Origin: a virus
IMG/VR virus record: IMGVR_UViG_3300012096_000023
Coordinates: 1 to 22,351 of that record
Direction: 5' to 3' (one strand)
Length of the DNA stretch: 22,351 nucleotides
Under the pieces are notes generated by a model that saw only the letters and a list, made by a program, of their open reading frames with translations, had not been told where the DNA came from and searched no databases. The position numbers and the translations under genes were made by a program. Shown piece by piece: positions 4,147 through 20,705 of this stretch. Within the stretch, counting starts at the first letter, position 1, and each line of letters starts with the position of its first letter.

Positions 4147-6515
4147 TATACGCCCGTATTCACTGTTTCGTAAATAGACCAACCGATGATATCAAAGGGT
4201 AGATTACCTACAGAAGAAACTTTTATTTGAAGGACTAAACCACGTCCTCTTATCTTTACTCTTCGCGGCATTACGGCGTAGTTATTATTATACATATTAA
4301 CTAATTGAGCCGTACTCCAACGTCCGGAATCACCAGTAATAGCGTAATCCCATTGCCCTTGGATATAAGAAGCATTTCTTTCTTCATTCAATCTGTAGTA
4401 CATATACAGATAAGGAATTTGAAAGCGCATCTGGCCTTTGCCATGGAGCTTATAACCAGTCACAAAGAATGATTCGTAACTATTACCTACATTATCTAAT
4501 GAAAACCAATCTAGATTATTGCTATCGTGTTCATCAGAGAAGGTAAACTTATAGGATCCCGCTGAAGAAGTCGATGTTAAGTACTTGAAACCTGGTGCAG
4601 GAGAAGTACTAGAAGTATTTCCTGGACTAGAAACATACAGTATTCCATTGATAAATGGATCTGTACTTAGTCCATTAGCATTAATACTGTAAGGATAAAA
4701 GGCTTTATTGTAGACGTTGTAATTTAGTATATGATCATAACTATAACGAAGGGTAAGATCAGCATTATTATCTTGATCATTATAAATCCATTGAATAACA
4801 TAATCTAACGGATGGTAATAACCTCTGGCGAATTTCTTACTAGCTGTAGGAATACTATTATAAAAACTAAGGATAGTCCCTACCGTAATAGGTTCCACCG
4901 TTAAGCCACCTCCCTGGGAAGGCTTTACAGCGTAAATACCTTCAGCATTCCAAAAGTAGGGAAGTCCTTGGACATCTACAAAAGACGTACTAGAAATACT
5001 TTGAACTGAAGAAATTTTAGTACTAGTAAAATCATTAGCAGAGAAACCAATACCTTGGCTACCTGTTATAAACCACACACCATTAGCGGCAAATACAAGC
5101 ATACCATTTTGTATTGGGAATAACTTGTAGATAGCTCCAGCACCTTGTATCTGTATTACTCCACCATCAGTTGGCAATAAATCAAATAACGTTTCTGAAG
5201 TAGGATCATTCGTTTGATAACACAAACCAAAATCATCTGTAGTCAAACTTATTTGACTAAAGTAAATATTCTCAGTCCACGTATAAAAATTAGCAGTGCC
5301 TCCGGCTACTTGACTCGCGTCAACACCGGCGTACCATACGCGTCCCTGAAACCAGGTTCCTGTTCTTGGACGTACAGCAGTCGTAACATCAGTTAATCCA
5401 GCAACAGTTGAGATGAGACTTCGTTGTTGATTAAATGCACTAAATATAAAATGACCTTGTGGGGCTTGACCTGCATTTAAACTCACTTGAACAGCCGTAG
5501 TAGCAGGGTCAAAGGTATTACTGGCATTCTTAAAGAACCACCATACATCGGCATTACTGGGGTAATTGCCTTCTGCACTAAACCAAGTGTTGATATACCC
5601 ACTATTTATAGGAGTAATATAATAGGGCCCTAATGCACTACCTATATAAGTACCGTTACTACCTGTAACATTTATAGTAAGAGTAGTTCCTACGTAAGAC
5701 GTAACTGTACCACCCATCATAAAGGTACCAGCTGGTGTATAAATACCGCCAGGGTTAGTATCAGTGGTAGTCGTAACTGAGACTTGTTGTCCGTTAGAAA
5801 CTCCAGTTATGCCCGAGGCGACTGTGAAAGAAACACTTCCAGAAGATATCACAGTAGGGCTTGAGCCCACACTTTGGGCAAGCCAAGGAGAACCTTGGGT
5901 CCATCCTTGATTTATTAAATTGTAATTATGTGCAGCAGATAAAGTAACTGGACGCTGATTAACGGGTATACCTAGTTCAGAAACACCTGTAAAATCTCTA
6001 ATCTTAATACTTATAAGCTTAGCTGTAATCACACCAGCATTGTAAGAACAAAAGAAAGGGTCACAACTAGGATGGAATACAAATAAGTATCCATTACCAT
6101 CTGTGAACTGACATTCTTGTGTAGAAGGATCTGGCGTCACTCCAGTTTGGAATGATGTAATATCAACAGTACTAAATAATATTTGTTTTGAAAGAGGATT
6201 AGTAATAGTTGAACTAGAAGATAAATAGAAATTCAATGTCTTACCGACTTGAGTAACTATTATCTGGGTACTACCATCACCACCTGCATTATTCCATTTA
6301 TAAGTATTGATAGCTCTACCAGTTCGGTCTAGTGTATTAGTACCAAAGTTAGTTTCGTAATCTATACCTTGACGACGTGTAACGTCCCCAACTATAGTAT
6401 AAGCACAATTGTCAGTATCGGTAGCTGCATTTTCTGGGAAGTTCATCCCAGTAAATTCAGTAATCAAACCTTTAGTAAAATTGTTTTCAACGGAAGATAT
6501 TTGTTGACTAGGCAT
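4146..6515 (-). CDS. Tail tubular protein B-like (gp12-type nozzle/stabilization protein)
   Basis: At 789 aa it is almost the length of T7 gp12 (about 794). The N-terminus has the pattern usual in this family: an opening with NNFTKGLITEFTGMNFPENA, then a cluster of Thr/Asp/Asn residues and VTRRQGIDYE near residues 45-55. The rest is rich in Gly/Ser/Thr/Asn and aromatic residues with no membrane segment, as expected for a beta-rich structural protein. Residues 205-310 hold an inserted Ser/Thr/Gly/Val-rich stretch that could be an extra beta domain exposed on the tail. In T7 the protein forms the nozzle at the tail tip and contacts the fibres. It starts at the ATG at 6515, which shares bases with the stop of the 89-aa gene (TAATG). 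Recognition rests on length, N-terminal pattern and order after tubular A. Confidence 0.85.
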   Translation of the reverse strand: MPSQQISSVENNFTKGLITEFTGMNFPENAATDTDNCAYTIVGDVTRRQGIDYETNFGTNTLDRTGRAINTYKWNNAGGDGSTQIIVTQVGKTLNFYLSSSSTITNPLSKQILFSTVDITSFQTGVTPDPSTQECQFTDGNGYLFVFHPSCDPFFCSYNAGVITAKLISIKIRDFTGVSELGIPVNQRPVTLSAAHNYNLINQGWTQGSPWLAQSVGSSPTVISSGSVSFTVASGITGVSNGQQVSVTTTTDTNPGGIYTPAGTFMMGGTVTSYVGTTLTINVTGSNGTYIGSALGPYYITPINSGYINTWFSAEGNYPSNADVWWFFKNASNTFDPATTAVQVSLNAGQAPQGHFIFSAFNQQRSLISTVAGLTDVTTAVRPRTGTWFQGRVWYAGVDASQVAGGTANFYTWTENIYFSQISLTTDDFGLCYQTNDPTSETLFDLLPTDGGVIQIQGAGAIYKLFPIQNGMLVFAANGVWFITGSQGIGFSANDFTSTKISSVQSISSTSFVDVQGLPYFWNAEGIYAVKPSQGGGLTVEPITVGTILSFYNSIPTASKKFARGYYHPLDYVIQWIYNDQDNNADLTLRYSYDHILNYNVYNKAFYPYSINANGLSTDPFINGILYVSSPGNTSSTSPAPGFKYLTSTSSAGSYKFTFSDEHDSNNLDWFSLDNVGNSYESFFVTGYKLHGKGQMRFQIPYLYMYYRLNEERNASYIQGQWDYAITGDSGRWSTAQLVNMYNNNYAVMPRRVKIRGRGLVLQIKVSSVGNLPFDIIGWSIYETVNTGV

Positions 6516-15958: not shown

Positions 15959-17541
15959 GCGACGCCACCCCAACGGGAATTATATTGGTATGCATTGGTA
16001 TTTTCTTTCATAATCCTATAGGTATTTAACGGTGCTACTGAGAAATCTATAGCTGCAGCCAGGGCGTCTTTGACGTCATCATGGGCCGGGTTTGTGTATA
16101 CGAGTTCTTCTTCAAGGATTTGACAATTCCCGCCTGAGTAATGCCAGACTTGACGATTCTGGTACTTGGGTTCAAGAACGGCTAAAATACGTTCTTCCTT
16201 GACTCCTTGCCACCTAACTGGCCGGAATTCGTCAACTGAAAGGCTGAGTCCATATTTACGGATGTAGTTTTCTTGGAAGTCTCTAACGAGTGCGACTTGG
16301 GCAACGTTGACTTCTGCTCGGATCTTTCTAAAGCCCCATTTTTCATATAACTTGATAATTCGCTTAAAGTATTCAGACGGCGTGTCCGACCTGAATCTGT
16401 CGATGTCGAGGACATAATAATTTCTCTTTCCGTCTACACCGATGACCACGATTGCGGTGTAATCTGCTTTCCTGCCAATAGAGAAGGCGAAGTCAACGGC
16501 TGCAACGACGTTGAGAGGTTCTCGTTGGTAGTACCATTGGTAATCTCGTCGGGAGATGTGGTCTTGGTTATAGTATTGAAAATAATCTCGTTTGATTGGG
16601 GTGGAGTCGACGTCATTCGGATCGTTATAGTATTGGGCTCTGAACTGAACCATGTTAGTTGAGTACTGGGCACGTTTAACTGCGAGGACTTGACTGTCAA
16701 ATCCGTAGTATTTTCCATCGGGCGACTTACTTCGAGGCCAAATGTATTCGCCAGTGCCGTCTCCGACATTCTCCACGGGCCACTCCCTGTAGTCAAAAAG
16801 GGGCCGAGTATTGATGGGATTTCCCAAAGCATCATAGTCTGATATTTCCATATGTAAAAGAGTTGAGTATAGATCGTTAGGATGGTACCTTGTACCGAAT
16901 ATCCATTCCCGTGCACCAGTACTTTCTACAGAAGAAAGGTGGTTATACTGTTGAAGAGTTTTATCACGGCCTTGTTCAGTGTTAGCGTTATTGAAGACAA
17001 CGACGTCATCCATGACGCATATATCCGCATGCATACCAACGATATTCGTAGTAAGACCAGCGGTAAAAATACTAGGATCGCGAATATACGCTTCACGTCG
17101 TAGTGGATGGTCGAGAGAGATTTCCCTTTCAGTCCACTTTTCACGCTTGGCTTCTTCCTTATTGACCATTTCAGGCCAATACATCCTGTAAACGTCTGAA
17201 GTCAATATGTCTTTCATAAACTTCAGTTGTTTAGTAGCGAGATTGCTAGTACTAGAAATATACAGTACCTTGAGTGTAGGGTCTCTTGTAAGCTCTAATA
17301 CGACAAGGAGAGCGGCTAAGGCGCTCTTCATATGATCTCTAGGTAGGAGAAGTAGAAGATGATTCTTCGCTTCAGTGGAATCCCACCATTGAAGAATTTC
17401 CCTATGGATACTTCCTAACCAACGTTTAGGCTGGACAAGCGAAATAAACTCAATAGGACTCGACAAGGCAAGCCTACGGCGTTCATCCCTGGCTTGTTCT
17501 ATATCTGTTCTAGGCTTGCGACCAGGTTTAGCCAAATGCAT
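15955..17541 (-). CDS. terL: Large terminase subunit (packaging ATPase-nuclease)
   Basis: This 528-aa protein is the motor that packages DNA into the procapsid and cuts concatemers. The ATPase domain has a variant Walker A, LLPRDHMKS (about 65-73), a Walker B ending ICVMDD (174-179, with D178/D179) and a coupling motif GTRYHPND (about 216-223). The C-terminal RNase H-type nuclease has three acidic motifs: VAAVDFAF (D350), RAEVNVAQ (E410) and HDDVKDALAAA (D488/D489/D492). The N-terminal segment is basic (KPGRKPRTD). The ATG at 17541 lies inside the end of the SGNH gene; a TTG at 17544 would add one residue. No small terminase gene is recognisable beside it. The portal follows with an ATGA overlap. 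Confidence 0.93.
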   Translation of the reverse strand: MHLAKPGRKPRTDIEQARDERRRLALSSPIEFISLVQPKRWLGSIHREILQWWDSTEAKNHLLLLLPRDHMKSALAALLVVLELTRDPTLKVLYISSTSNLATKQLKFMKDILTSDVYRMYWPEMVNKEEAKREKWTEREISLDHPLRREAYIRDPSIFTAGLTTNIVGMHADICVMDDVVVFNNANTEQGRDKTLQQYNHLSSVESTGAREWIFGTRYHPNDLYSTLLHMEISDYDALGNPINTRPLFDYREWPVENVGDGTGEYIWPRSKSPDGKYYGFDSQVLAVKRAQYSTNMVQFRAQYYNDPNDVDSTPIKRDYFQYYNQDHISRRDYQWYYQREPLNVVAAVDFAFSIGRKADYTAIVVIGVDGKRNYYVLDIDRFRSDTPSEYFKRIIKLYEKWGFRKIRAEVNVAQVALVRDFQENYIRKYGLSLSVDEFRPVRWQGVKEERILAVLEPKYQNRQVWHYSGGNCQILEEELVYTNPAHDDVKDALAAAIDFSVAPLNTYRIMKENTNAYQYNSRWGGVA

Positions 17542-18865
17542 CAATCACTGGTTGCATCAACGAAGCAACAACACCGTAACCTGCGTCGACTAGATGTAAT
17601 TGATCGCCAGCGTAATACGTTGTATTACTTGGAGTTTGTAATCTCGTATCATTTGCGAGGTCAACAAAACCATCAGCAAATGCGTGGTTATTACGCAAAC
17701 TCGTGTTGAAAGCTAGACGCTCTGTTTCCATAGCTCCGGTCCATGAACCATCGCCACGTGCAATTATCGTCATAGCGACAAGTTTTGAACTAGCATTAGA
17801 CGCACGGCGATTAGCAAAGTAAGTCTGTAGCGCAGTATAAGTTGCCGCACCAGTACTGCCATTTCCTAGATCGTTTGTGCCTCCCCAACCTGCAATAACA
17901 GTTCGGGTGTAATAACCGCAGATTGGATCAGTAAGAGCTGCTGCGTTACTGTCTATTTGCGAGATAGTAGTACCAGCGGAACCTTGGTTTTGGATAATCC
18001 AAGTTGTGGCACCTCCAGCCAACAATAATTGAAGCTGACCAGGATACGCACTCGATCCTCCTGGAACCGAACTGCCAGTACCAAACGTTAAACTATCGCC
18101 ATCACCGATGAATAGTTTCTTAGTAGTAAGAGCGTACTTAGCATAAAGATACCCGTAAATCTGGGTAGCCTGAGGCCCTGTTAAGGTAGAATCACAAACT
18201 ATTAGTTCTGATATTTGTATATGTGCAAAAAAGCCTGCATTGTGACCACCAGGTGCGCCTAACGTAATTGCAGTAATAGCGGCAGAAGGACCTCCTGAAT
18301 TAGTTATTAATATTTCGTTATTACTTGTTATTGTTGTTGAAGCACCATTATAAAGGCCATCTGCGACATAAGCTGGATTAGTTAGTTCGCCACCCTGCCA
18401 TTTATGATTTCCACTACCATCACTATCAAATCCCCAGAAGATAGAATTTGAACCATCTAATGCCATGACATTGGTATTAGTAGCTTGACCGTCTAGGAAG
18501 TATTTACTACCTTGGGTATTATCTAAGTTTTTGAAGACACAGAAGATACGTCGAGGTGTATTTAGTGATGCAAAGGTTGGAGATGTAGCAAGACTTGTCG
18601 AACCATCAAACTCAACGGTAGGTTTACTATTAGGCCCTGATGCTCGATAAGTAAGTGCTGTAGCAGCCGCTAACGCACCATTTGCAGAAAGAGATTGGTC
18701 TACCCACTTCGCTGCCGTGACGGCTCCGCCGTCTGAAACACCAGTAATAGTTCCTGCATTTAACCAGTATTTAACTGCGGTAAGACTACCAGGAGAGAAA
18801 GACGCTCCTCCTTGGGTATTACTACCAAAACCAGGGAATAGTTTATAACCTAGAGTAGAAAACAT
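17528..18865 (-). CDS. Tail fibre/spike-like protein with C-terminal SGNH (GDSL) hydrolase domain
   Basis: This 445-aa protein has two parts. Residues about 20-250 are Gly/Ser/Thr-rich with KYWLNAGTITGVSDGGAV, PTVEFDGSTSL and a later LIVCDSTLTGPQATQIYGYL stretch, a pattern seen in concanavalin A/LamG-like lectin domains of phage and bacterial surface proteins. Residues 250-445 are an SGNH hydrolase: block I GDGDSLTFG with nucleophile S258, block II Gly in NQGSAG (G295), block III GWGGTND with N331, and block V DQLHLVD with D421 and H424. Such enzymes remove acetyl or acyl groups from surface polysaccharide and often sit in phage receptor-binding proteins. The end overlaps terminase by 14 bases. 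There is no signal peptide. Virion location is inferred. Confidence 0.85.
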   Translation of the reverse strand: MFSTLGYKLFPGFGSNTQGGASFSPGSLTAVKYWLNAGTITGVSDGGAVTAAKWVDQSLSANGALAAATALTYRASGPNSKPTVEFDGSTSLATSPTFASLNTPRRIFCVFKNLDNTQGSKYFLDGQATNTNVMALDGSNSIFWGFDSDGSGNHKWQGGELTNPAYVADGLYNGASTTITSNNEILITNSGGPSAAITAITLGAPGGHNAGFFAHIQISELIVCDSTLTGPQATQIYGYLYAKYALTTKKLFIGDGDSLTFGTGSSVPGGSSAYPGQLQLLLAGGATTWIIQNQGSAGTTISQIDSNAAALTDPICGYYTRTVIAGWGGTNDLGNGSTGAATYTALQTYFANRRASNASSKLVAMTIIARGDGSWTGAMETERLAFNTSLRNNHAFADGFVDLANDTRLQTPSNTTYYAGDQLHLVDAGYGVVASLMQPVIDAFG

Positions 18866-19504: not shown

Positions 19505-19664
19505 GTATAGTACTTACGACGGGAGAAATATCCTTAGCTGTAGGCTTCTGTAGTCCTACTAGATTCAAGGAATGTTCCAGGAGTAAACCTTGGAGGAGGA
19601 GACTCTGAGGTAAGTCTAGACGATGGATAGCGTCTTTAATTGGTTTGGGTATAGTTACAGTCAC
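19494..19664 (-). CDS. 56-aa protein of unknown function
   Basis: A GTG at 19664 overlaps the stop of the upstream Lys-rich gene (GTGA) and has an AAGG ribosome site about 5 bases upstream. The protein reads MTVTIPKPIKDAIHRLDLPQ at the N-terminus, has a Leu-rich middle (SLLLQGLLLEHSLNLVGLQK) and ends IHVP. The opening strand followed by a helix and a second Leu-rich helix would suit a small ribbon-helix-helix-like DNA-binding fold, but that is only a resemblance. Coupled junctions on both sides and lack of internal stops support it as a real gene. Confidence 0.6.
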   Translation of the reverse strand: MTVTIPKPIKDAIHRLDLPQSLLLQGLLLEHSLNLVGLQKPTAKDISPVVSTIHVP

Positions 19665-19765
19665 TTGACCTTCTTATCCCGTTTCTTATCTTTCTTGGAA
19701 CCTTCTTTAATCCCAAGCTTTTTATCTCTGGCCATATCGGCCTTCTTAGATAATGACATCGCCAT
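19661..19765 (-). CDS. 34-aa lysine-rich mini-protein
   Basis: The ATG at 19765 overlaps the stop of the 44-aa gene as TAATG. The protein opens MAMSLSKKADMARDKKLGIK and its last 14 residues are nearly all Lys, Asp, Arg, Glu, Ser or Val. In all there are 12 Lys and 2 Arg in 34 residues. Such composition suggests nucleic-acid or membrane-surface binding. The following gene starts inside its stop codon, so the three first genes of the operon are one coupled string. Function is unknown. Confidence 0.6.
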   Translation of the reverse strand: MAMSLSKKADMARDKKLGIKEGSKKDKKRDKKVK

Positions 19766-19899
19766 TATGTATACCTTCCTACTGCAGATTTGCCTTTGTG
19801 TTTACTATTCCAGATCTTGGCAGCTTTAGTCTTAGCTGCTTTAGTAGACATACCTTTAGAGATGAAGGCGTCTCTGATTTTTTCATATCCTGCTGGCAT
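19765..19899 (-). CDS. 44-aa small basic phage protein, first gene of the late operon
   Basis: The protein reads MPAGYEKIRDAFISKGMSTK, then AAKTKAAKIWNSKHKGKSAV and GRYT. I recall this kind of sequence (MPxGYxKIxDxxxxKGxSxKxAKxKAAKIWNxxHKG) as a widespread short phage/prophage protein of unknown function. The ATG at 19899 has CAAGGT five bases upstream and lies about 43 bases downstream of the expected start point of the consensus promoter. Longer starts (ATG at 19950 or 19977) lie within or upstream of that promoter and would not be transcribed from it. Confidence 0.75.
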   Translation of the reverse strand: MPAGYEKIRDAFISKGMSTKAAKTKAAKIWNSKHKGKSAVGRYT

Positions 19900-19904
19900 A
19901 TACC

Positions 19905-19933
19905 TTGACTTCTTAGTTATAGTAAGCCATAAT
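19905..19933 (+). promoter_or_regulatory. Plus-strand sigma70-type promoter for the rightward small genes
   Basis: The -35 box TTGACT (19905-19910) and the -10 box CATAAT (19928-19933) are 17 bp apart, each matching consensus in 5 of 6 positions. Transcription would start near 19940 and reach the first plus-strand gene at 19985. The -35 lies over the ribosome site of the minus-strand 44-aa gene. It faces the minus promoter. Confidence 0.65.
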
Positions 19934-19936
19934 GGC
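19926..19936. promoter_or_regulatory. Operator-like palindrome GCCATAATGGC in the divergent control region
   Basis: An 11-bp inverted repeat (GCCAT, A, ATGGC) covers the -10 box of the plus promoter and lies just downstream of the expected start of the minus promoter. A protein bound here would block the plus promoter directly. The site is short, so regulatory use is inferred. Confidence 0.35.
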
Positions 19937-19948
19937 CTTTGTCTAAAC

Positions 19949-19977
19949 ATTATACAAATTTTAAGAAAGGCTGTCAA
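19949..19977 (-). promoter_or_regulatory. Exact-consensus sigma70 promoter of the minus-strand operon
   Basis: On the minus strand TTGACA (19977-19972) and TATAAT (19954-19949) are separated by exactly 17 bp, 12 of 12 consensus bases with optimal spacing. Transcription should start near 19942 and runs leftward into the 44-aa gene and the whole virion operon. No other strong promoter was noticed within the operon. Confidence 0.88.
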
Positions 19978-19984
19978 GACAATA

Positions 19985-20215
19985 ATGGATATAATAGATA
20001 TTTCAATAAGTTATCGTAGAAATTGCGGAGAAAGAAGGAAACCAAGTTTTACTAAGAAAGGTCCTTTAAATATTAATACTAATGAAATTCCTGTAGTTAA
20101 TCCTTTTTTAGTTGCTATTAATCATAGTAAACATTCAGGACTACTTTATAGAAATGCTATGGGCGGTATAGAGAAACAGGGTAAACCTAGATATTACCCG
20201 GATTTATTTGAATAA
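19985..20215 (+). CDS. 76-aa basic protein, first gene of the rightward small-gene group
   Basis: This plus-strand ATG at 19985 is about 45 bases from the expected promoter start. It is preceded by AAGAAAGG, at a longish spacing of 14. The protein is 76 aa, basic in the first third (ISYRRNCGERRKPSFTKKGP) and ends KQGKPRYYPDLFE. It is soluble, with no recognised motif. Codons are A/T-ending like the AT-rich tail genes, so it looks native to this phage. It is followed after one base by the next gene. Small early host-takeover proteins would be expected here, but function is unknown. Confidence 0.65.
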   Translation: MDIIDISISYRRNCGERRKPSFTKKGPLNINTNEIPVVNPFLVAINHSKHSGLLYRNAMGGIEKQGKPRYYPDLFE

Positions 20216-20357: not shown

Positions 20358-20506
20358 ACAGTAAGGATTTAGAAGTGATGATTATGGACTATTCCGAAGA
20401 CCATCCTATATGGAAAAGCATAGACAAAGGAGGAGGCCAAAGTTGTGACGTCCGTGGTGTTTTGAGGCAATTATTTCATGATGGATACAAAATCATCAGA
20501 AGGTGA
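20342..20506 (+). CDS. 54-aa protein, unknown
   Basis: The ATG at 20342 follows an excellent ribosome site (GGAGG, 6 bases upstream), the best in this group. The protein begins MYRRMNSKDLEVMIMDYSED, contains HPIWKSIDKGGGQSCDVRGV and ends LFHDGYKIIRR. The basic ends with an acidic middle suggest a small folded alpha/beta domain. It overlaps both neighbours, as small early phage genes often do. I do not recognise a family. Confidence 0.65.
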   Translation: MYRRMNSKDLEVMIMDYSEDHPIWKSIDKGGGQSCDVRGVLRQLFHDGYKIIRR

Positions 20507-20705
20507 TGCTCCACCTTCCGTAGATAGGTGTTTAAATGGCCAGAGAAGCCCGCTGGTGCGTTTAAATCAAAAAGAGCTACCACCCTACGTCTCAGAGACA
20601 AATCGATCTCCTGAGCCTTCCTACGGGCTCGATGTCTCGATGCTTGAATGGGCCCTGAAGTTTATGAAAAACTACGAAAGGAAAAGAAGTGGAAAACTGG
20701 TATGA
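20478..20705 (+). CDS. 75-aa protein, unknown, last of the rightward small-gene group
   Basis: The ATG at 20478 (or 20481) lies 29 bases inside the previous gene, with a GAGG about 10 bases upstream. The first 50 residues are polar and Pro/Ser-rich (PPYVSETNRSPEPSYGLDVS). The C-terminus is an amphipathic basic helix (MLEWALKFMKNYERKRSGKL). It looks coding because of that helix and its fit with the neighbours, but the long overlap lowers certainty. The gene-free control region begins after it. Confidence 0.55.
   Translation: MMDTKSSEGDAPPSVDRCLNGQRSPLVRLNQKELPPYVSETNRSPEPSYGLDVSMLEWALKFMKNYERKRSGKLV

What the first reader, a model, noticed from the sequence alone, without database searches (positions are those of the whole stretch)
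19905..19977. Face-to-face promoters form a mutually exclusive switch between the two genome arms
The plus promoter (boxes 19905-19910 and 19928-19933) and minus promoter (19972-19977 and 19949-19954) point toward each other. Their predicted start points nearly coincide (about 19940 and 19942) and each transcript leaves past the other's -35 box. Polymerase footprints would overlap almost fully, so only one direction can be open at once. Leaders are near-equal (about 45 and 43 bases). A palindrome covers the plus -10. This looks like a compact choice point between small rightward genes and the virion operon.
Basis: partly seen in the sequence, partly recalled or inferred. Interest (0 to 1): 0.66.

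Follow-up and report, generated by a model that had tools for sequence, protein, structure and literature searches.

The report
Opposed overlapping promoters between phage arms
In a family of environmental phages related to marine cobaviruses, the main strong promoter site is two host-type promoters pointing at each other on nearly the same DNA, so that in most members polymerase can serve the replication genes or the virion genes but not both at once; the pair appears to be kept by selection, but that it works as a switch is not shown.

Summary
Minus promoter: TTGACA-17-TATAAT (12/12). Plus promoter: TTGACT-17-CATAAT (10/12). Predicted starts are 19942 and 19940; leaders are 43 and 45 nt. In this window alone the pairing is weak evidence (chance about 6%).

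Relatives change that. Among phages with a related terminase, 43 arm junctions carry a virion-ward promoter of at least 10/12. In 23 of them an opposing promoter of at least 10/12 lies within 60 bp; 1.5 were expected. Without near-copies it is 18 of 35. Those 35 junctions hold 38 of the 56 promoters of at least 11/12 in 506 kb. Neighbouring genes and spacers change while the boxes persist.

Start-to-start distance varies: -44, -2, 0, +2, +3 in the window's clade; +29 to +34 in others, where footprints superimpose almost exactly. A pattern for the +34 form hit 23 IMG/VR contigs, 18 of them this family.

Corrections: footprints overlap by about half; the palindrome is unremarkable; no shared operator was found; the nearest relatives (-44) lack binding-level overlap. 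Isolated Zobellviridae keep the virion promoter without the overlap. Best reading: a polymerase-competition hub between the replication and virion arms. "Switch" is unproven.

The parts
19949..19977 (-). Virion-ward promoter: -35 TTGACA 19977-19972, 17-bp spacer, -10 TATAAT 19954-19949 (12/12); predicted start about 19942
   Evidence: virion-ward near-consensus promoter at all 43 junctions analysed (junctions were chosen for it) and in cobavirus isolates
19905..19933 (+). Replication-ward promoter: -35 TTGACT 19905-19910, 17-bp spacer, -10 CATAAT 19928-19933 (10/12); predicted start about 19940
   Evidence: opposing promoter of at least 10/12 within 60 bp in 23 of 43 junctions, 1.5 expected
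19926..19936 (.). Palindrome GCCAT-A-ATGGC over the plus -10; probably incidental
   Evidence: 60 comparable repeats in the window, no enrichment of inverted repeats at the family's junctions
19765..19899 (-). First gene of the virion-ward transcript (44 aa); its AAGG Shine-Dalgarno (19906-19903) overlaps the reverse complement of the plus -35 box
   Evidence: orthologues in about 20 relatives; -35/SD overlap; weak sub-threshold resemblance to DUF7218
19661..19765 (-). Second small lysine-rich gene of the virion-ward transcript
   Evidence: DNA conserved in many relatives, window 19665-19768
19985..20215 (+). First candidate gene of the rightward transcript (76 aa), leader about 45 nt, weak Shine-Dalgarno; coding status uncertain
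   Evidence: no family match and no relative among the loci
20478..20705 (+). Small rightward gene with relatives in the early arm of other members
   Evidence: about 40% identity to L026, L002
21676..22350 (+). Rightward gene cut by the contig end; early-arm gene of relatives
   Evidence: 57% identity to L007, 46-49% to L004, L005, L006

Best explanation
The site is the main divide of the genome: two strong promoters for host sigma70-type polymerase placed head-on, one serving the replication arm and one serving the virion arm. Shown: the boxes, their conservation as a pair, the replacement of sequence around them, and their place at the arm divide. Inferred: both fire with host polymerase. 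In the window the shared 39 bp of footprint includes both start sites, so a polymerase bound in one direction blocks the other, and each departing polymerase runs over the opposite promoter and can dislodge one waiting there. The perfect virion-ward promoter should usually win, with the replication-ward promoter taking a smaller share. The hub would thus set a ratio of transcription between the arms by competition. Any change of direction during infection would need another input, such as a phage or host factor, or the order of genome entry; none was found here.
For: Opposing promoter of at least 10/12 within 60 bp at 23 of 43 junctions, 1.5 expected; 27 such pairs in 931 kb against 4.35 (max 8) in shuffles; 38 of 56 promoters of at least 11/12 lie at the junctions; boxes persist while neighbouring sequence is replaced (window vs L002; L089 vs L090); the +34 form superimposes footprints over 75 of 76 bp and is nearly confined to this family in IMG/VR (18 of 23 hits) and rare in 257 Gb of bacterial genomes (28 hits); no shared operator; competition is documented when one direction of a bidirectional promoter is strongly active (PMC12825309).
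Against: No transcript data. The opposing promoter is weak or missing at about a third to a half of junctions (L025, L029, L045, L054, L062 and others). In L002/L003 footprints do not overlap. The replication-ward box of the window is the weaker one (CATAAT). The host and its sigma factor are unknown.
Confidence: 0.6

Rival explanations
1. A true regulated switch: a phage-encoded repressor or activator binds the hub, closes one promoter and so releases the other, as in P2 and 186 but between early and late lytic programmes.
For: Geometry resembles phage switches with convergent promoters (PMC6593788); cobavirus isolates encode an HTH protein near the start of the early arm; some members have dyads at a promoter (L033 TTCCTTAA/TTAAGGAA, L004, L005).
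Against: Inverted repeats are not enriched over shuffles (10 seen, 8.6 expected); spacers and flanks are not shared between relatives; the HTH_39 family is absent from the environmental relatives searched; no integrase.
Confidence: 0.2
2. Simple compaction: short intergenic space forces two promoters onto the same DNA; interference is a tolerated by-product with no role.
For: Junction space is small in several members; the -35 box of one promoter merges with the Shine-Dalgarno of the outgoing gene on 13 junction sides, including the window.
Against: Several junctions have 250-400 bp or more between called genes yet keep the overlap (L018, L026, L037); isolates of related phages keep separate promoters; distances cluster within -53..+34 instead of spreading.
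Confidence: 0.15
3. Chance: AT-rich sequence resembling promoters, with only the minus promoter real.
For: In the window alone the chance of the pairing is about 6%; promoter-like sites overall are not above shuffles.
Against: Family-wide enrichment, near confinement of the +34 form to this family, persistence of the pair while flanks are replaced.
Confidence: 0.05

Closest known systems
Bacterial bidirectional promoters (Warman et al., NAR 2026, PMC12825309)
   Same: Opposed sigma70 promoters on the same DNA; one bound polymerase excludes the other.
   Different: In E. coli they share a -10 element with starts 18 bp apart and the five tested are too weak to compete at basal level. Here both promoters are near consensus; in the window the starts coincide and transcripts run through each other's promoter; in the +34 form the -10 boxes are separate and interleaved. 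L040 (+18) matches the E. coli spacing.
Convergent switch promoters of phages 186 (pR/pL, pR/pE) and P2 (Pe/Pc)
   Same: Face-to-face sigma70 promoters in a phage genome with transcriptional interference (PMC6593788; Milagro and P2 in PMC13026187).
   Different: Those act in lysis-lysogeny control with repressors; starts lie further apart (about 60 bp for 186 pR/pL, from memory). Here the divide is replication arm versus virion arm, and no integrase or shared operator was found.
Overlapping divergent promoters of conjugative plasmid pLS20 (PMC4207663)
   Same: Overlapping opposed promoters used in a genetic switch (title and abstract only read).
   Different: That switch involves a regulator and DNA looping on a plasmid.
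Cobaviruses and other Zobellviridae isolates (P12053L, ICBM1, CRP-5; PMC6775973)
   Same: Two-arm genome, related terminase, near-consensus promoter at the head of the virion arm.
   Different: No overlapping strong early promoter at that site; CRP-5 has ordinary divergent promoters about 130 bp apart. The cobavirus paper reports a bidirectional terminator and does not mention promoters.

Membership tests
Sigma70-type promoter (each of the two) | -35 and -10 hexamers near TTGACA/TATAAT with 16-18 bp spacing | tested here: met
   12/12 with 17 bp and 10/12 with 17 bp
Sigma70-type promoter (each of the two) | Transcript starts 5-9 nt after the -10 | not testable with these tools
   no RNA data
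Bidirectional promoter (Warman et al.) | Starts on either side of, or within, a shared -10 element | tested here: not met
   separate -10 boxes 19928-19933 and 19949-19954; starts coincide between them (definition)
Bidirectional promoter (Warman et al.) | Opposing polymerases cannot bind together | tested here: met
   39 of 76 bp of assumed footprints shared; geometry only
P2/186-type lysis-lysogeny switch | Convergent promoters with overlapping transcription | tested here: met
P2/186-type lysis-lysogeny switch | Temperate phage with integrase | tested here: not met
   no PF00589 in 20 long relatives while controls ring; the window itself is a fragment
P2/186-type lysis-lysogeny switch | Repressor operator at the promoters | tested here: inconclusive
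   no enrichment of inverted repeats; asymmetric sites not excluded
Zobellviridae-related podovirus | Terminase, portal, capsid and tail relatives with two opposed arms | tested here: met
Zobellviridae-related podovirus | No phage RNA polymerase | tested here: inconclusive
   PF00940 absent in 20 relatives, but the control genomes did not ring

The most novel reading that the evidence does not exclude
In this clade the division of transcription between replication and virion arms is set by polymerase orientation at one site of about 38-73 bp made of two near-consensus promoters, without a dedicated repressor: a naturally selected competition regime that the five E. coli bidirectional promoters tested so far do not reach at basal level.
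Probability: 0.33. Interest if true: 0.75.

Novelty: new variant of a known kind. Interest (0 to 1): 0.56.

Why it matters
How phages of this family, which appear to rely on host polymerase, divide transcription between replication and virion genes is not described; the cobavirus paper reports a terminator between the arms and no promoters (PMC6775973). A conserved pair of near-consensus promoters on the same DNA gives a simple, testable answer. It also offers natural strong superimposed promoters for studying polymerase competition, where the five E. coli cases tested were too weak to compete at basal level (PMC12825309). The spacings across relatives, from -44 to +34, form a ready-made natural series.

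Tried and rejected
Palindrome as operator: one of 60 such repeats in the window, no enrichment at junctions. Rfam on the window and ten relatives: no hit. DNA similarity of the region to deposited phages: none. Temperate switch: no integrase in relatives. HTH_39 as a shared regulator: only in the two cobavirus isolates. Merger of -35 and Shine-Dalgarno as a general rule: 13 sides among 43 junctions, a tendency at most. Order of genome entry as timing device: several contigs of about 50 kb end within 0.2-4 kb of the junction on the early side, but others of that size do not and no end repeats are recorded; left as a lead.

Full report
WHAT THE WINDOW IS. The window is a 22,351-base IMG/VR virus record without end repeats. 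It encodes a podovirus virion operon on the minus strand: terminase (TerL), portal, major capsid and tail proteins. TerL is about 55% identical to Celeribacter phage P12053L and Lentibacter phage ICBM1 (Zobellviridae, Cobavirinae). Environmental relatives reach 96%. The rightward ORFs belong to the other arm: the partial ORF from 21676 is 57% identical to an early-arm gene of L007. PolA is present in 18 of 20 long relatives, and where its orientation was worked out (for example L004, L026) it lies on that arm.

THE OBSERVATION. Both promoters are present as described. Minus is a perfect TTGACA-17-TATAAT; plus is TTGACT-17-CATAAT. Predicted starts are 19942 and 19940, leaders 43 and 45 nt. Taking footprints of -55 to +20, 39 of 76 bases are shared: enough to forbid joint occupancy, but half, not 'almost fully'. 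The plus -35, read on the other strand, is AGTCAAGG and contributes to the AAGG Shine-Dalgarno of the first virion-operon gene. In this window alone a partner of at least 10/12 within 60 bp has a chance probability of about 0.06, so the window by itself proves little.

RELATIVES. In the terminase relatives plus the window (931 kb) there are 27 opposite-strand pairs of promoters of at least 10/12 with starts within 60 bp; first-order shuffles give 4.35 on average and at most 8 in 20 runs. Forty-three arm junctions with a virion-ward promoter of at least 10/12 were then taken one by one. Twenty-three carry an opposing promoter of at least 10/12 within 60 bp, against 1.5 expected; at 9/12 it is 29 against 8.5. 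With near-copies removed it is 18 of 35. At those 35 junctions lie 38 of the 56 promoters of at least 11/12 in 506 kb: this is the main strong-promoter site of the sequence examined. Selection caveat: junctions were chosen for the virion-ward promoter. L031, L072 and L078 lacked one of at least 10/12, and L066, whose 10/12 promoter lies away from its best pair, was also left out. The expected numbers concern only the opposing promoter.

SPACING. Let d be the virion-ward start minus the opposite start. The window's clade (seven rows, support 100/100 in the TerL tree) has d = -44 (L002, L003), -2 (window), 0 (L007), +2 (L005, L006) and +3 (L004, weaker boxes, 10+9). Elsewhere d is +5, +18, +29, +33, +34, or -16, -30, and with a weaker partner -10 and others. 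At +33 to +34 both promoters fit into 38 bp, each -35 beside the other's -10, and the footprints coincide over about 75 of 76 bases. A pattern for the +34 form, scanned over the IMG/VR virus collection, hit 23 contigs; 18 carry this family's TerL. The same pattern occurs 28 times in 257 Gb of bacterial genomes. The form is therefore close to diagnostic for this clade. The looser pattern for the window's own spacing was not informative.

REPLACEMENT AROUND THE HUB. The window and L002 align over TerL and again further out, but not across the promoters and the genes beside them, yet both have opposed near-consensus promoters. L089 and L090 share 46 identical bases that contain the +34 hub, while the sequence flush on both sides differs, although a little further out they are 99% identical on the virion side and 95% on the early side. 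Boxes staying while neighbours change is the best evidence that the pair itself is selected, or that it serves as a joint for exchange.

ISOLATES. P12053L and ICBM1 keep a 12/12, and CRP-5 an 11/12, promoter at the head of the virion arm, but no strong early promoter overlaps it; CRP-5 has ordinary divergent promoters about 130 bp apart. Overlap thus looks derived in the environmental clade. Where the opposing promoter is missing in the clade (for example L025, L029, L045), the virion-ward one remains.

MECHANISM. Shown: geometry, conservation, position. Inferred: host polymerase binds in one of two orientations; the loser waits or is dislodged. Warman et al. (PMC12825309) found five E. coli bidirectional promoters too weak for such competition at basal level, while competition appears when one direction is activated; near-consensus promoters should be in the competing range. 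For convergent promoters of phage 186, reported interference ranges from 1.5-fold to about 6-fold, with removal of waiting polymerases as one cause (PMC6593788). At d = -44 footprints do not overlap, so only passing polymerases can interfere there. Competition alone gives a ratio, not a switch: in the model of PMC4519249 bistability is lost with interference alone. No common operator, integrase or shared HTH_39 protein was found; absence of a phage RNA polymerase is likely but was not tested with a working control. I therefore favour a competition hub and keep the regulated switch as a rival.

NOVELTY. Opposed overlapping promoters are known (bidirectional promoters, P2 and 186 switches, pLS20). 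What I did not find described, in a limited literature search, is a phage family that places two near-consensus promoters on the same bases at the divide between replication and virion arms. It is a new variant of a known kind.

SIDE FINDING. Eight distinct relatives, not the window, carry a conserved RNA element at the very start of the virion transcript: GGG, a linker, a 4-5 bp stem whose loop starts UAA and ends CCCC, so that GGG can pair with CCC as a 5'-terminal pseudoknot. A strict search found 11 copies in 2.5 Mb, all at this place; all four stem pairs counted show changes on both sides; Rfam has no match at gathering thresholds.

Noticed in passing
L014 2086, L021 679, L023 6587, L027 1902, L028 1413, L062 1014 (+); L093, L096, L103 (minus strand); not in the window: Conserved 5'-terminal element of the virion transcript, GGG-linker-[stem]-UAA..CCCC-[stem'], a possible H-type pseudoknot with a covarying stem; 11 copies in 2.5 Mb, all just downstream of the junction promoter; no Rfam match at gathering thresholds.
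   Followed up: partly
L089 around 5750-5787 and L090 around 5465-5502: 46 identical bases holding the nested promoters, with different small genes flush on both sides, in otherwise 95-99% identical DNA: small-gene cassettes turn over against the promoter.
   Followed up: partly
records behind L028, L029, L050, L054, L062, L071: Several contigs of about 50 kb end within 0.2-4 kb of the junction on the early side, which may mark physical genome ends close to the hub; other contigs of that size do not.
   Followed up: partly
19856-19877: Terminator-like hairpin with six T on the plus strand inside the first virion gene, just upstream of the plus promoter; it could stop rightward read-through into the hub.
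   Followed up: no
17528-18865 (minus): GDSL-like lipase/acylhydrolase domain protein (PF13472, E 3e-12) between the small genes and the terminase; perhaps a virion-borne esterase.
   Followed up: no
L082 30175 and 34038; L083 29377 and 33240; L084 28106: Cobavirus isolates carry further near-perfect virion-ward promoters just after the capsid gene (12/12) and, in L082 and L083, just before the portal gene (11/12); the window shows none of at least 10/12 at those places.
   Followed up: no
about 8790 (plus strand): An 11/12 promoter-like site TTAACA-16-TATAAT antisense inside the virion operon; L004 and L062 have the same hexamers and spacing at a similar distance from the junction.
   Followed up: no
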